Below are positions 1-4,548 of a stretch of DNA of 64,000 nt, piece after piece. The position numbers were made by a program, and so were the translations under genes. The stretch's first letter is position 1; each line of letters starts with the position of its first letter. Location: positions 124,001 through 188,000 of the forward strand of contig NZ_RAXT01000002.1 of NCBI RefSeq assembly GCF_003611475.1, given 5' to 3'. The notes under the pieces were generated by a model. The model saw only the letters and a program-made list of their open reading frames with translations. It searched no databases and was not told the origin of the DNA. The DNA is from Acinetobacter rongchengensis (lineage in GTDB: Bacteria; Pseudomonadota; Gammaproteobacteria; Pseudomonadales; Moraxellaceae).

Positions 1-1394
1 ATATTGGCTAAAGCAGAATAGGCTACTTTGTCTTTGGCATTGACTGTTGTACCTTCCATTTTGGTAAATGCCATACTACCGCCCATCAAAGCAGCATAAC
101 GATGGGTTTCCAAGAAAGCGGCTGCTTTTTCCATACCCACTTTGACTTTGACCCACATGGTTTTCTTTTGCAGAATGATTTTGGTGAAACTAGCATCTTG
201 TGGGTCTTTGTCTAAACTTTCCATAATATCTGTTGGTTGAATATTTTTAACATTCACCAAATCTTCAATTTCTTGGCTGGTCGCATGACCCAATTTAATC
301 CATTGAATTTGTGCAGTTGAGCTTTCATTCAATTCATTTAAATACTTGGCGACATACAGTGTTCCAGCAGATAAATCTTTTTCTTTATCCGCAACAAACA
401 TGAACAGTCCACCATTGGTATAGTCATCCCCCATTAACGCGGTTCGATTATCAGGCATGACTTGAATCAACTCATGTGAAATACGACCTAAGCAATAATG
501 CTTTTTCGCAGAACCTGTCCCGTCTTTATTCACTGTAATTTCAGGTAAGTGTCCATAATTATATGGTTTGGCAGAGGTCTCATCGCCATAGACATTTTTA
601 CTATAGGCTTTCATGGTCGCCATATCAGTCCCTAAACCCTGACCAAAAGCATCAGGCTCATATTCTTCACTTGAAAGATGTGTTCCCCATGGCGATAAAC
701 TTGCACCACAAGTAATCCATAATCCATGTACTTTAGACATATCGACATTGTGATATTTCACTAAAGTTAAGTGTCCCGTTTTTGGGTCTTGATCTAGCGA
801 AATCACGGCAATTGGCGATGGCAATTTTCCATACATATCACTGCCTGCTAAATCACGAGTGGTATATTCAAATTGCACAACTGCAAATACAGGATTACCT
901 TTCACACCGTCAACTTTGGCATCTTTAACGGTCAATAAAGAAGTACCGTCTGGGCAATCTGAAAAGAATTGACGTTCTTTACCTGCAACAGATTTATCCA
1001 TAATGGCTTTATTATTAATATCATAATAACCACCAGCTAAAATTTGACCACCCTTTCCATCACTCACCATATCACCCGTTTGGAAAAAGGTTTTATACGC
1101 AAGTTTATATTCAGTCTTGGTATTATCATCCCAAGTTACAGCCAAACCTGACGCCACAGTGGTAGTTGCCATCGCCGCTGCATTTGCCAATGTCGGTGCA
1201 TCCATTGGAGTAAATGTCGCTGATTTCAATTTAGCTAAATTTACAGGAGGCTTCACTGCCGTTTCGTTATTATTGTCATCATTACATCCAGCAAGCGTTG
1301 CTGAAGTTGCCATAGCCCCAAGTGGAAGAAAAGGTACACTGGCTAACCATTTTAAAATTTCACGACGGGTGTGTTGGTTGGCTGAGTTTGTCAT
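1..1394 (-). CDS. phoX: PhoX-family alkaline phosphatase (DUF839), 3' end outside window
   Basis: The first 464 codons of a secreted phosphatase are visible; the C-terminus lies beyond the left edge. The start at 1394 is an ATG with a GGAAA ribosome site about 8 nt upstream. The N-terminus carries a twin-arginine motif (T-R-R-E-I-L-K, Arg10-Arg11), then a hydrophobic stretch and a lipobox L-A-G-C with Cys37, followed by an Asp/Asn-rich linker. It is therefore probably exported folded by Tat and lipid-anchored. PhoX enzymes are Ca/Fe-dependent monoesterases that release phosphate from organic esters. The visible body has PhoX/DUF839-like stretches, for example D-P-K-T-G and G-L-W-I-T-C-G-A-S-L-S-P-W-G-T. 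A probable Pho box sits just upstream, which fits phosphate-starvation control. Confidence 0.85.
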   Translation of the reverse strand, partial: MTNSANQHTRREILKWLASVPFLPLGAMATSATLAGCNDDNNNETAVKPPVNLAKLKSATFTPMDAPTLANAAAMATTTVASGLAVTWDDNTKTEYKLAYKTFFQTGDMVSDGKGGQILAGGYYDINNKAIMDKSVAGKERQFFSDCPDGTSLLTVKDAKVDGVKGNPVFAVVQFEYTTRDLAGSDMYGKLPSPIAVISLDQDPKTGHLTLVKYHNVDMSKVHGLWITCGASLSPWGTHLSSEEYEPDAFGQGLGTDMATMKAYSKNVYGDETSAKPYNYGHLPEITVNKDGTGSAKKHYCLGRISHELIQVMPDNRTALMGDDYTNGGLFMFVADKEKDLSAGTLYVAKYLNELNESSTAQIQWIKLGHATSQEIEDLVNVKNIQPTDIMESLDKDPQDASFTKIILQKKTMWVKVKVGMEKAAAFLETHRYAALMGGSMAFTKMEGTTVNAKDKVAYSALAN

Positions 1395-1434
1395 CTAGAG
1401 TTTCCAATTTAATTTTAGAATTTTTCCTCAGCTG

Positions 1435-1468: not shown

Positions 1469-1654
1469 TTTTAAGTCAATTTAAAGACAAAAACTTAAAA
1501 ATTCATATTGTGATAAAAATTATAGGGATAAGTCCTAGATGATTCTCATATAGATGTTTCAAACTATATCACGCTAGAATTACCCCTTGTATTGAGCAAA
1601 TTTTGCTATACTCCAAGCTGTATTAAATTTTAACGTATAAGATTTTATAAACCT

Positions 1655-3148
1655 GTGCCTTATTCCTTTACCCCAACAACAGAACAAAGTTTTGCAATTG
1701 CAGAAGCAAAAAAGGGACAATCCTTTAAAGTGATTGCCTATGCTGGCACAGGTAAAACCACGACTTTACAGTTGATTAGCGACGCAATGCCGAATCGACG
1801 GGGGATGTATTTGGCTTTTAATAAAGCCATAGCCAGCGAAGCACAAAATAAATTTCACAACAATGTCGACTGTCGAACCTTTCACTCATTGGCGTTTCGA
1901 AGTGTGCCACGTGGTGTGACGGATAAATTACGTTTACCTCGGTTAAGTCCAAGTTTTATTGCCAAAGAATATCGTCTCGAACCCATCACACTACGACGAC
2001 TGATGGGGGGGCGTTATGAAAAATATATCTTGATGCCGAGTCGCTTAGCCAGTTTAGTGGCCAATGCTGTCAGTTATTATTGTTCAACCAGCTCACAATA
2101 CCCTGCACCTCGTCACATACAAGCACCGAGTTGGTTACATCCTGATGATGTAGAGTCTTTACAAAAACATCTTTATCCTGCTGTCGAAAAGCGTTGGTTA
2201 GAATCCATTGATCCAAACCATCAAGCAGGCATTGGACATGATATTTACTTGAAATTATGGGCATTATCAGACCCGTATATTCCTGCGGATTATGTTTTAT
2301 TTGATGAAGCACAAGATGCAGATCCTTTGATGTTGGGTATTTTACTACGCCAACGTAGCACTCAAGTGATCTATGTCGGTGATGCACATCAACAGATTTA
2401 TGCATGGCGTGGTGCTGTCAATGCCATGCAGAAAATGCCTTTACCTGAGTCACGTTTAACCACATCTTTCCGTTTTGGCGATGCCATTGCTGATGTTGCC
2501 AATCACTTACTTGGTGCTTTAGATGAAACTGTGCCGTTATTGGGTAATCCTGATATGAAATCTCATGTGGTCAATAAGCCACATACCAAAATGCGTGATG
2601 CAATTTTATGTCGCACCAATGCACGTGCGATGGAACTCTTACTTTCAGGTTTAGTGCAGGGTGATAAAGTTAGCTTACAAGCGGATCATGTCAAATTAAA
2701 TCGTTTTGTCGATGCAGCAAGCCTGCTCAAACAAGGTAAACGTGTCACAGATGTGCCTGAATTGGCTTGGTTTAATTCTTGGCATGACGTACATGAATAT
2801 TGCGAAACCAATGATGGTAGTGATATCAAACCTTTAGTTAAACTGGTTGATGATCACGGTACTGAACCGCTGAAAAAAGCACTTGCTAAAATTACCCCAA
2901 TAGAGCAAGCTGATTATGTTATCTCTACTGCGCACAAAGCCAAAGGTTTAGAATGGAATCGTGTGCATATCGAAGATGATTACCAATTTAAGATCAATGG
3001 TCTTGAACATAAAATCAGTGACGAAGAATTAAGACTGTTATATGTTGCTTGTACACGAGCAAAAGTTAGTTTAAATATTCATCATATTTATGATCTAGTA
3101 CAACAACTTAAACAAAAAGTGCCATTCAAAAATAAAGCGACTGCATAA
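1655..3148 (+). CDS. UvrD/Rep-like superfamily 1 DNA helicase, compact form
   Basis: A 497-residue SF1A helicase-like ATPase, shorter than UvrD/Rep/PcrA (about 670-720 aa). Motifs in order: Q-motif region T-T-E-Q near residue 8; Walker A A-G-T-G-K-T-T-T at 30-37; Walker B D-E-A-Q-D near 217-221; motif III G-D-A-H-Q-Q-I-Y-A-W-R-G soon after; motif V S-T-A-H-K-A-K-G-L-E-W near 425; motif VI Y-V-A-C-T-R-A-K near 462. All hydrolysis residues look intact, so it should translocate on ssDNA. The missing length suggests reduced 1B/2B subdomains. The start is GTG with no clear Shine-Dalgarno. The next gene begins 29 bp downstream, so the two are probably co-transcribed. Its role is unknown; repair, recombination or defence are all possible. 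Confidence 0.85.
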   Translation: MPYSFTPTTEQSFAIAEAKKGQSFKVIAYAGTGKTTTLQLISDAMPNRRGMYLAFNKAIASEAQNKFHNNVDCRTFHSLAFRSVPRGVTDKLRLPRLSPSFIAKEYRLEPITLRRLMGGRYEKYILMPSRLASLVANAVSYYCSTSSQYPAPRHIQAPSWLHPDDVESLQKHLYPAVEKRWLESIDPNHQAGIGHDIYLKLWALSDPYIPADYVLFDEAQDADPLMLGILLRQRSTQVIYVGDAHQQIYAWRGAVNAMQKMPLPESRLTTSFRFGDAIADVANHLLGALDETVPLLGNPDMKSHVVNKPHTKMRDAILCRTNARAMELLLSGLVQGDKVSLQADHVKLNRFVDAASLLKQGKRVTDVPELAWFNSWHDVHEYCETNDGSDIKPLVKLVDDHGTEPLKKALAKITPIEQADYVISTAHKAKGLEWNRVHIEDDYQFKINGLEHKISDEELRLLYVACTRAKVSLNIHHIYDLVQQLKQKVPFKNKATA

Positions 3149-3177
3149 CACTGTAGTTTTTTCTTTACAGGTGTCCC

Positions 3178-4548
3178 ATGAAACTACAAGCCATTCATTT
3201 TCGACATGTTTATCATTTTGCCGATTTAAAAATAAATTTTAACCATTCACATAAACCCATCACCATAATTGTCGGCGACCAAGCTTCAGGTAAAACAGCA
3301 ATTATTAAAAATATTTACCAAGCTTTAACCTGGTTTCCTGCACGTTATAAAGACTTACGTACACCTGGTGTGGTCATGCTTGATCAAGATATTATGCTTG
3401 ATCGAGTGCAAGCAAAAATTGATGTAACTATCCATATTCCAACTGAATTTGGTACATTACCTGAAAGTGATGGAACCACTGAAACAGATACACAAAGTTG
3501 TCGTTGGCAACTGTATAAAACATTGAATGCCAATGGTGTAGGCATCAGCAAAGTTGAATTAGAACAATTAGAACAAACCGTTACTTTGTATAATCAAGTC
3601 ATTAAAAAAGACCCTGTTCAAGGTCTCCCATTACTTGCCTACTACCCTGCTGAACGCTTTGTTAACGAAGTAAACATTCTCAGTAAAAATAATCCGCTTG
3701 TTCTACAACAGTACAATGCTTATGAATTGGCAAGTATTCCATACACGACATTTGCACGTTTTTTTGAATGGTTCAGAGAAATCAGTGATATTGAAAATGC
3801 ACAAACGGCGCAACTTTTTCAAAATATTCTTAAACATAAAGATACATCGAATAAATCAAATCAAGACTTTCAAAATACATTATATCTTGCGTATTCACAG
3901 TTACATGCGCCAAGCTTACAGGCTTTAAAAACCGCACTGAGAACCGTAATTCCAGAAATTACCGATATTTTTTTAGAATATCATCCCAAATTGCAATTGA
4001 TGGTTAGCTATAAAAACCAAACTTTTACCTATCAACAACTATCGAATACTGTGAAAAATTGGATTGGTTTAGTCGGTGATTTGGTACGTCGTCTGTGCTT
4101 GCTGAATCCTCTCAGTCTATACCCTTGTTTAGAGGGCGATGGTGTGCTGTTGATTGATCAAATTGATGTAGATTTAGACCAATATTCGATTCAGGTGATT
4201 TTAGATCGTTTACATCAAGCCTTTCCATTAATACAAATCATTGCAACTGGTAGTCATGAAGAATTGCTCGAACAAGCAGATGAATATCAATGTTTCCATT
4301 TGAAAAATAAGCAATTACATGAAGTTCAAGCTGATTCTGCATGGCAAGAATATCAACATATTTATGAAAATTTACTCAAAGAAGCATCGCAATATGCAGA
4401 ACAAGAATTGATTGAACCGAACGTGGATGCATTGAATGCACAACAACTGTATTTACAATTTCAGGCTTTAACTGAAGAACAACAAGTTGAATTAAAACGA
4501 TTAATTCAACAAGGTGATGACTTATCTCCACATAAATCATTACTTTAA
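3178..4548 (+). CDS. RecF/SMC-like AAA ATPase with degenerate signature and Walker B
   Basis: A 456-residue ABC-type (RecF/SMC-head-like) ATPase resembling the COG3950 group. The N-terminus has the typical start M-K-L-Q-A-I-H-F-R-H and an intact Walker A, G-D-Q-A-S-G-K-T at 33-40. Family-typical stretches Y-Y-P-A-E-R-F and F-F-E-W-F-R-E-I-S-D-I-E-N follow. The usual ABC signature (L-S-x-G-E-x) reads L-S-N-T-V-K-N-W at 288-295. The Walker B reads V-L-L-I-D-Q-I-D, with Gln328 where the catalytic Glu is expected, so hydrolysis may be slow or lost. The acidic C-terminal 90 residues are mostly helical, and no TOPRIM or nuclease motif was recognised. It follows the helicase gene by 29 bp and likely works with it. 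Function not known. Confidence 0.75.
   Translation: MKLQAIHFRHVYHFADLKINFNHSHKPITIIVGDQASGKTAIIKNIYQALTWFPARYKDLRTPGVVMLDQDIMLDRVQAKIDVTIHIPTEFGTLPESDGTTETDTQSCRWQLYKTLNANGVGISKVELEQLEQTVTLYNQVIKKDPVQGLPLLAYYPAERFVNEVNILSKNNPLVLQQYNAYELASIPYTTFARFFEWFREISDIENAQTAQLFQNILKHKDTSNKSNQDFQNTLYLAYSQLHAPSLQALKTALRTVIPEITDIFLEYHPKLQLMVSYKNQTFTYQQLSNTVKNWIGLVGDLVRRLCLLNPLSLYPCLEGDGVLLIDQIDVDLDQYSIQVILDRLHQAFPLIQIIATGSHEELLEQADEYQCFHLKNKQLHEVQADSAWQEYQHIYENLLKEASQYAEQELIEPNVDALNAQQLYLQFQALTEEQQVELKRLIQQGDDLSPHKSLL

What the first reader, a model, noticed from the sequence alone, without database searches (positions are those of the whole stretch)
1655..4548. Compact UvrD-like helicase paired with an ATPase lacking its catalytic glutamate
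The helicase keeps all motor motifs but is about 200 residues shorter than UvrD. The neighbouring RecF/SMC-like ATPase has a normal P-loop, yet reads D-Q where Walker B needs D-E (Gln328), and its ABC signature is L-S-N-T-V. A natural E-to-Q change usually traps ATP and locks the dimer, so the second protein may be an ATP-gated clamp rather than an enzyme. The pairing recalls two-gene defence modules such as Gabija, but the order and the lack of a TOPRIM nuclease differ.
Basis: partly seen in the sequence, partly recalled or inferred. Interest (0 to 1): 0.62.

Follow-up and report, generated by a model that had tools for sequence, protein, structure and literature searches.

The report
Helicase with a retired defence ATPase
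Most Acinetobacter species examined carry, next to a highly conserved DNA helicase, a relative of an anti-phage ATPase that still looks able to hold ATP but has lost the parts needed to split it, which suggests a defence protein recycled as an ATP-holding helper.

Summary
The window is Acinetobacter: a 497-aa SF1A helicase (1655-3148) lies 29 bp ahead of a 456-aa ABC-type ATPase (3178-4548) reading D327-Q328. The Gabija comparison fails. The helicase is an FBH1 relative (PDB E 4e-42; GajB about 3e-4), present in 175 of 175 Acinetobacter genomes and not truncated for its family. The ATPase has the Septu/retron PtuA fold (VIA Z 36; AriA and SMC heads 17-20), but no PtuB nuclease was found beside it. 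Orthologues occur in 154 of 175 Acinetobacter genomes and not in 51 genomes of 15 other genera of the family. In 147 aligned orthologues the ATP-binding residues G38, K39, S/T40 and D327 are invariant, while hydrolysis residues are lost: signature Gly291 0, H-switch His359 1, catalytic Glu328 7 of 147 (Q69 A47 H10 N8 D4 G2); 28 of 28 PtuA-like controls keep all three. Purifying selection (median omega 0.068) says it is not junk. So the lineage kept ATP binding and dropped hydrolysis, rather than fixing one E-to-Q change. Most likely it is a domesticated PtuA pseudo-ATPase serving the helicase; that partnership rests on gene order alone.

The parts
1655..3148 (+). 497-aa SF1A (UvrD-superfamily) helicase, FBH1-like, core gene of Acinetobacter
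1745..1762 (+). helicase motif I (Walker A, GTGKTT, residues 31-36)
   Evidence: invariant in 148 Acinetobacter helicases
2303..2317 (+). helicase motif II (DEAQD, residues 217-221)
   Evidence: invariant in 148 Acinetobacter helicases
3149..3177 (+). 29-bp gap between the two genes, same strand; probable operon
   Evidence: gaps of 12-123 bp in 147 of 149 genomes
3178..4548 (+). 456-aa PtuA-fold pseudo-ATPase (predicted to bind, not hydrolyse, ATP)
3274..3297 (+). Walker A / P-loop GDQASGKT (residues 33-40); G38, K39 and S/T40 kept in 147 of 147
4039..4053 (+). degenerate ABC signature L-S-N-T-V (residues 288-292); Gly291 of PtuA lost in 147 of 147
4144..4161 (+). Walker B VLLIDQ (residues 323-328); D327 kept in 147 of 147, Glu328 in 7 of 147
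4177..4179 (+). Asp334, in place of the LHP histidine of PtuA; D in 147 of 147, H in 28 of 28 controls
4246..4260 (+). degenerate H-switch (TTHSP in most controls; TGSHE here, residues 357-361)
1607..1612 (+). TATACT, probable -10 element ahead of the helicase; also seen upstream in 6 of the 9 hisIE-less relatives printed
   Evidence: consensus recalled; not tested

Best explanation
The pair is a chromosomal, vertically inherited operon-like unit of Acinetobacter. The first gene is an FBH1-type SF1A helicase/translocase and probably a housekeeping motor that unwinds DNA or strips proteins such as RecA from it (inferred from family). The second gene descends from a Septu/retron-type PtuA ATPase. 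By the ancestor of the known Acinetobacter copies it had no PtuB nuclease partner and had lost the ABC signature glycine and the LHP histidine; the catalytic glutamate and the H-switch then went too, while the residues that hold Mg-ATP stayed invariant. It most likely works as an ATP-binding, non-hydrolysing accessory of the helicase: an ATP-stabilised scaffold or clamp that positions or regulates the motor on particular DNA. Shown here: gene order and conservation, predicted fold, residue losses, purifying selection. Inferred: ATP binding, absence of hydrolysis, order of the losses, physical partnership, and the DNA-repair role.
For: ATPase beside the helicase on the same strand in 149 genomes, 147 of them 12-123 bp apart; helicase in 175 of 175 and ATPase in 154 of 175 Acinetobacter genomes. 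PtuA fold: Foldseek E 2.7e-25, VIA Z 36.5 against 19.5 for AriA and 18.5 for the best SMC head; NCBIfam PtuA E 1.3e-45, below its cut-off. Residues: K39, S/T40, D327 147 of 147; G291 0, H359 1, E328 7 of 147; controls 28 of 28 for each. On the tree G291 and D334 changed once, residue 328 at least 22 times. Median omega 0.068 for the ATPase, 0.015 for the helicase, in 215 close pairs, which are not independent. No PtuB in the 64-kb window or in 80 named loci, against a PtuB-like HNH ORF (named by eye) beside 9 of 11 control loci inspected. FBH1 is the best solved relative of the helicase, E 4.4e-42; fission yeast Fbh1 disrupts Rad51 filaments (PMC4148199, abstract).
Against: No experiment shows ATP binding, contact between the two proteins, or any phenotype. 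The ATPase is dispensable to the helicase: 21 of 175 genomes have no match, 2 more hold only remnants and 2 a gene split by a frame change. Rate covariation of ATPase and helicase (partial r 0.44) is no stronger than that of the ATPase with the neighbouring antiporter gene (partial r 0.54), so there is no specific coevolution signal. Genomes that recently lost the ATPase show no clear change in the helicase: more differences from the consensus than a chosen sister in 4 of 6 pairs, equal in 1, fewer in 1. The helicase structure prediction failed (pLDDT 38.7). Adjacency could partly reflect the frozen order of this locus.
Confidence: 0.5

Rival explanations
1. A two-gene anti-phage defence module that works like Gabija or a nuclease-less Septu: the ATPase senses phage DNA or nucleotide state and the helicase is the effector.
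For: Both genes have defence relatives: PADLOC PtuA E 1.5e-57 for the ATPase; for the helicase a DRT-associated helicase E 3.6e-17 and GajB E 4e-16. The ATPase evolves faster than the helicase in 214 of 215 close pairs, as a sensor in an arms race might. Its Walker A Lys and Walker B Asp, the motifs whose mutation abolishes defence in an E. coli Septu (PMC13096335, passage), are kept.
Against: Near-core, one locus, between hisIE and mnh rather than in a defence island; no nuclease domain matched in either gene and no PtuB beside them; hydrolysis residues lost across the genus; omega shows purifying selection, not diversification.
Confidence: 0.15
2. The ATPase is a free-standing PtuA-derived protein that merely sits next to the helicase; its role (for example a dominant-negative decoy that poisons incoming Septu/retron PtuA, or a regulator of something else) is unrelated to helicase action.
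For: The helicase does well without it: all 21 genomes without an ATPase match keep the helicase, and so do several other genera of the family. No specific rate coupling. Many positions near-invariant here are shared with close PtuA controls (43 positions).
Against: Each best-scoring ATPase copy that was read (151 of 154 genomes) lies at the helicase locus, however old the split. One genome (G146) carries both this gene and a retron-type PtuA/PtuB-like locus, so exclusion of Septu-type systems is not absolute.
Confidence: 0.25
3. The ATPase is a decaying relic of a Septu system with no present function.
For: Loss of catalytic residues, 21 absences among 175 genomes, remnants in G049 and G168, split frames in G055 and G135, one in-frame stop in G139.
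Against: 147 copies of full length, 146 of them without a stop; 43 invariant residues; median pairwise identity 52% (130 genomes); median omega 0.068; ATP-binding residues G38, K39, S/T40, D327 kept in all 147.
Confidence: 0.07

Closest known systems
PtuA of Septu and of type I-A retrons (Ec78/Eco7, Ec83/Eco4)
   Same: Same fold over residues 1-388, about 18-26% identity in structural alignments, a shared conserved block around FFEWFREISDIENA, intact P-loop and Walker B Asp.
   Different: No PtuB found, no reverse transcriptase among annotated neighbours; signature Gly, catalytic Glu, H-switch His and LHP His lost; below the PtuA equivalog cut-off (151-156 bits against 500).
FBH1 (F-box DNA helicase 1), 9xzj
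   Same: Helicase core aligned over residues 20-473, E 4.4e-42, the best solved relative by far.
   Different: Aligns only to residues 384-858 of the 972-residue FBH1 chain, so without the part before it; bacterial. RecA as target is inference only.
Gabija (GajA + GajB)
   Same: A UvrD-like protein and an ABC-type ATPase encoded side by side.
   Different: Helicase far closer to FBH1 than to GajB among solved structures (4e-42 against 2.5e-4); ATPase is PtuA-like with no TOPRIM match; gene order reversed (recalled); GajB lacks elements important for helicase function and did not unwind DNA (PMC10681800, abstract).
Plasmid and phage UvrD-like helicases (phrog_1967; annotated '3'-5' exonuclease' or DNA helicase)
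   Same: 33-45% identity along nearly the full length in the rows listed, leaving out six rows that are Acinetobacter copies at 90-91%; same compact size.
   Different: Carried by mobile elements; no PtuA-like neighbour in the one plasmid record inspected (its gene table may be incomplete).

Membership tests
Septu (PtuA-PtuB) | PtuA-fold ABC ATPase | tested here: met
   Foldseek E 2.7e-25; VIA Z 36.5 to retron PtuA, 34.0 to Septu PtuA; PADLOC PDLC00271 E 1.5e-57
Septu (PtuA-PtuB) | HNH nuclease PtuB encoded beside PtuA | tested here: not met
   PtuB profile built from 9 control loci finds none in the window or in 80 named loci; it finds all 9 controls, which are its own building sequences
Septu (PtuA-PtuB) | complete ABC catalytic set (signature Gly, Walker B Glu, H-switch His) | tested here: not met
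   0, 7 and 1 of 147, against 28 of 28 for each in the controls
NCBIfam PtuA equivalog NF041760 | score above the curated cut-off of 500 bits | tested here: not met
   156.4 bits
Type I-A retron effector | reverse transcriptase and msr/msd beside PtuA | tested here: inconclusive
   annotated neighbours in two relatives are hisI, other metabolic genes and mnh/mrp genes, no RT; two control loci, L275 and L276, do show an RT-like ORF (named by eye). No RT profile was run and msr/msd was not searched for
Gabija | GajA: OLD-type ATPase with TOPRIM nuclease | tested here: not met
   no TOPRIM match among Pfam and NCBIfam rows, nor among the 25 of 48 PADLOC rows shown; the model is PtuA-like to residue 388 with short helices after it
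Gabija | GajB-type helicase | tested here: inconclusive
   GajB models match at 4e-16, but FBH1 is far closer among solved structures; no tree of the superfamily was built
UvrD/PcrA/Rep | score above equivalog cut-offs | tested here: not met
   rep 44.1 bits against 951; uvrD 38.5 against 1144; pcrA 34.9 against 911
FBH1-like SF1A helicases | closest sequence match to FBH1 over the helicase core, motor motifs intact | tested here: met
   9xzj_F E 4.4e-42, residues 20-473; motifs invariant or nearly so in 148 sequences
FBH1-like SF1A helicases | translocation and removal of recombinase from DNA | not testable with these tools
   needs biochemistry
ABC ATPases locked by E-to-Q | conserved Gln in place of the catalytic Glu with signature and H-switch intact | tested here: not met
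   residue 328 is Q in 69 of 147 only; signature Gly and H-switch also lost

The most novel reading that the evidence does not exclude
Acinetobacter domesticated an anti-phage PtuA ATPase into a permanent, ATP-loaded but non-hydrolysing DNA clamp or loading platform for its core FBH1-type helicase, so that a defence sensor became a genome-maintenance subunit. The pattern of residue loss (signature at the base, Glu328 drifting afterwards) suggests it changed from an ATP-cycling switch to a fixed ATP-bound scaffold.
Probability: 0.3. Interest if true: 0.75.

Novelty: new variant of a known kind. Interest (0 to 1): 0.52.

Why it matters
It looks like a clean case of an ABC-type defence ATPase turned pseudoenzyme and kept as a near-core gene across one bacterial genus, with the binding residues kept and the hydrolysis residues lost in 147 aligned copies. 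It gives a workable system (the A. baylyi type strain carries the pair, L270) to ask whether ATP binding alone is enough for a PtuA-fold protein to do work, and whether an uncharacterised bacterial FBH1-like helicase has a dedicated partner. It also warns that PtuA profiles such as PADLOC's can match this gene strongly (three copies tried) where no Septu nuclease is encoded beside it.

Tried and rejected
Rejected: Gabija-like module, E-to-Q locked dimer as a conserved feature, pseudogene, and 'truncated UvrD' (see the report).

Led nowhere: AlphaFold model of the helicase (28 similar rows, pLDDT 38.7). Rate-covariation test, no specific signal. Search for helicase positions that change where the ATPase is missing: 15 positions listed, mostly in early-branching genomes; five early-branching genomes that have the ATPase are about as divergent, so this was not read as an interface. 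Searches for a bacterial FBH1 and for pseudo-ATPases of this kind listed no title or abstract describing this pair; only listings (capped), abstracts and the named passages were seen. C-terminal residues 389-456 of the ATPase have low confidence and were barely covered by the structural comparison, so no fold is claimed for them. PtuA-like genes on four records were inspected for a helicase neighbour: in three the listed genes show none, the fourth has no annotation in that stretch; these gene tables are incomplete.
Full report
WHAT IS THERE. The window lies in a 4.1-Mb genome whose relatives are Acinetobacter: the closest named relative of the ATPase is A. piscicola, 94% identical. Downstream, after 440 bp, comes the large subunit A gene of the mnh/mrp antiporter (named from annotated relatives). 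Upstream, on the other strand, lies a 464-aa protein that I would call PhoX-like from recall only.

THE HELICASE. Pfam, NCBIfam and PADLOC place it in the UvrD/SF1A superfamily, far under the cut-offs of UvrD, PcrA and Rep; the best PADLOC rows are a DRT-associated helicase (3.6e-17) and GajB (4e-16). Among solved structures the clear best match is FBH1 (F-box DNA helicase 1, E 4.4e-42 over residues 20-473); GajB, UvrD and Rep are at 2.5e-4 to 7.7e-4 (two other entries, an armadillo-repeat protein and a designed-looking chain, match at about 5e-6 over some 30 residues). PHROG 1967 (DNA helicase) matches at 1.4e-101. Matches at E up to 1e-10 occur in 1,864 plasmid records, 1,763 of them covering at least 80% of the query, and in 252 phage records, 250 of them likewise; six of these, at 90-91% identity, are Acinetobacter copies in records that look chromosomal. 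So the small size is usual in this family, not a loss of 200 residues. It is present in 175 of 175 Acinetobacter genomes, in 217 of 249 genomes drawn from the family, 8 of 16 genera, at E up to 1e-60, and at E up to 1e-30 in 3 of 145 genomes drawn from the order, all three of the window's own family. In Acinetobacter it is very conserved: 49% of positions invariant in 148 sequences, median omega 0.015.

THE ATPASE. Sequence and structure agree that it is a PtuA-type protein. NCBIfam PtuA E 1.3e-45, but 156 bits against a cut-off of 500; PADLOC PtuA E 1.5e-57; PDB best match the retron Ec83 ATPase, E 2.7e-24. The AlphaFold model (64 sequences, mean pLDDT 82) matches retron and Septu PtuA with Foldseek E down to 2.7e-25 and VIA Z up to 36.5 (rmsd 2.3 over 324 residues), while AriA, SMC and Rad50 heads score 17-20. 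Orthologues occur in 154 of 175 Acinetobacter genomes at E up to 0.001, two of them only as remnants. In 51 chosen genomes of 15 other genera of the family only 8 give any match, each at most 34% identical and none over the full length. A scan of named genomes kept its best 80 of 218 relatives; 79 of those 80 are titled Acinetobacter and one is a Moraxellaceae bin.

THE ACTIVE SITE. I read 151 of the 154 positive genomes: 147 are of full length (one of them with an in-frame stop), 2 are split by a frame change, 2 are remnants; the last four were left out of the residue counts. In the 147: G38 147, K39 147, S/T40 147, D327 147. Signature position 291: Gly 0 (S113, T33, H1). Position 328: Q69 A47 H10 N8 E7 D4 G2. 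H-switch position 359: His 1 (N95, S27 and others); a His lies somewhere in 358-361 in 16. As a control I took 28 PtuA-like proteins of at least 380 aa from genomes of the same order (12 close, the rest more distant ABC-type relatives; one, L276, from an Acinetobacter genome; shorter and duplicate hits were dropped): K39, S/T40, S289, G291, D327, E328, H334 and H359 are each 28 of 28. Of the 147, 124 have none of E328, G291 and a His at 358-361; 16 have only the His; 7 have only the Glu. None has the full set. On an ATPase tree rooted with 12 controls and built without columns 291, 328, 334 and 359, G291 and D334 changed once, between the controls and the Acinetobacter copies; residue 328 changed at least 22 times and the H-switch at least twice. 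The first Acinetobacter branch (5 copies, support 81) holds E or D at 328, the rest mostly Q, A, H or N, with Glu again in a few later lineages (quick tree, long branches flagged by the program). I infer that the signature went first and the glutamate was then free to drift. That argues against a specific E-to-Q trap and for a general loss of hydrolysis with ATP binding kept.

SELECTION. In 215 close pairs (ATPase identity over 80%, dS 0.1-1.5; pairs share genomes and are not independent) median omega is 0.068 for the ATPase and 0.015 for the helicase; the ATPase is higher in 214 of 215. This is purifying selection on both, looser on the ATPase. Median pairwise identity in 130 genomes is 52% for the ATPase and 88% for the helicase.

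GENE ORDER. In 149 genomes the two genes are same-strand neighbours; the gap is 12-123 bp in 147, and 377 and 1,913 bp in the other two. In 70 of 80 named loci hisIE lies upstream on the same strand, within 1-25 bp in 66 (one of the ten misses starts at a contig edge), and in 78 of 80 the antiporter gene lies downstream, median 345 bp. This is a chromosomal housekeeping setting, not a defence island. Of the 21 genomes without an ATPase match 14 were read: in 9 of them the antiporter gene follows the helicase within about 0.3-0.7 kb, in 5 other genes lie after the helicase, and no remnant was found in any at E up to 0.001. On a helicase tree of 170 genomes, outgroups included and remnants counted as absent, the presence/absence pattern needs 7 changes. 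One gain in the Acinetobacter ancestor with several losses is my reading; the tree does not prove the direction.

NO NUCLEASE. 9 of 11 control PtuA loci inspected have a PtuB-like HNH ORF (named by eye) next to PtuA. A profile from those nine finds no PtuB in the 64-kb window or in the 80 named loci.

INTERPRETATION. In an E. coli Septu, mutating the Walker A or B motif of PtuA (K43 or D316) abolishes defence (PMC13096335, passage); the matching Lys and Asp are kept here, so this speaks for the value of the ATP site, not for or against a defence role. That ATP inhibits Septu PtuAB (Li et al. 2024) is recalled. In retron Eco8 an OLD-type effector with no detectable ATPase activity still needs its ATP-site residues for defence (PMC12887533, passages): a precedent for the nucleotide site mattering without measurable turnover. 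[quoted passage not shown] Put together, the best reading is a domesticated PtuA pseudo-ATPase serving an FBH1-like helicase as an ATP-holding accessory. The partnership itself rests on gene order; rate covariation gave no specific support.

VERDICT. Observation confirmed and strengthened; interpretation partly supported. It is a new variant of a known kind (PtuA family) in a new setting. Among the papers listed I saw no title or abstract describing it; the lists are capped and the library lacks most subscription journals.

Noticed in passing
L305 (CAKLQH020000005.1) and CAKLQF020000005.1: Records titled 'Acinetobacter phage MD-2021a': the first carries ubiB, hisI, this helicase-ATPase pair and mnh genes, and the second has the same pair, so these contigs look like bacterial chromosome labelled as phage.
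   Followed up: partly
L306 (CP035931.1): A 1.02-Mb A. baumannii 'plasmid' holds the same chromosomal locus (ubiquinone gene, ATPase, mnh genes), so it is probably a chromosome piece.
   Followed up: no
L194, G000:C204:11668-13176 (-): The window's own genome has a second FBH1-like helicase, 37-39% identical to the first, on an 18-kb contig; possibly a mobile element.
   Followed up: partly
window 1-1395 (-): In the window a 464-aa protein (PhoX-like, from recall) lies upstream of the helicase; hisIE was not found upstream in 10 of 80 named loci (one starts at a contig edge), among them A. piscicola and A. guillouiae.
   Followed up: partly
window 4177-4179 (Asp334): The His of the PtuA 'LHP' motif is Asp in 147 of 147 Acinetobacter copies, one change on the tree: a gained, fixed residue beside the lost active site, unexplained.
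   Followed up: partly
L174 (G168), L173 (G049), L172 (G055), L169 (G135): Four genomes carry broken ATPase genes (two remnants, two split frames) next to a helicase gene without a break.
   Followed up: partly
L276 (G146:C32): One Acinetobacter genome (G146) holds both the pseudo-ATPase and a retron-type locus with RT-like, PtuA and PtuB-like ORFs (RT and PtuB named by eye).
   Followed up: no
rows G070, G144, G009, G316, G290: Helicase matches that hold one TAA; in the three Acinetobacter ones the open frame ends within about ten residues of the match end.
   Followed up: no
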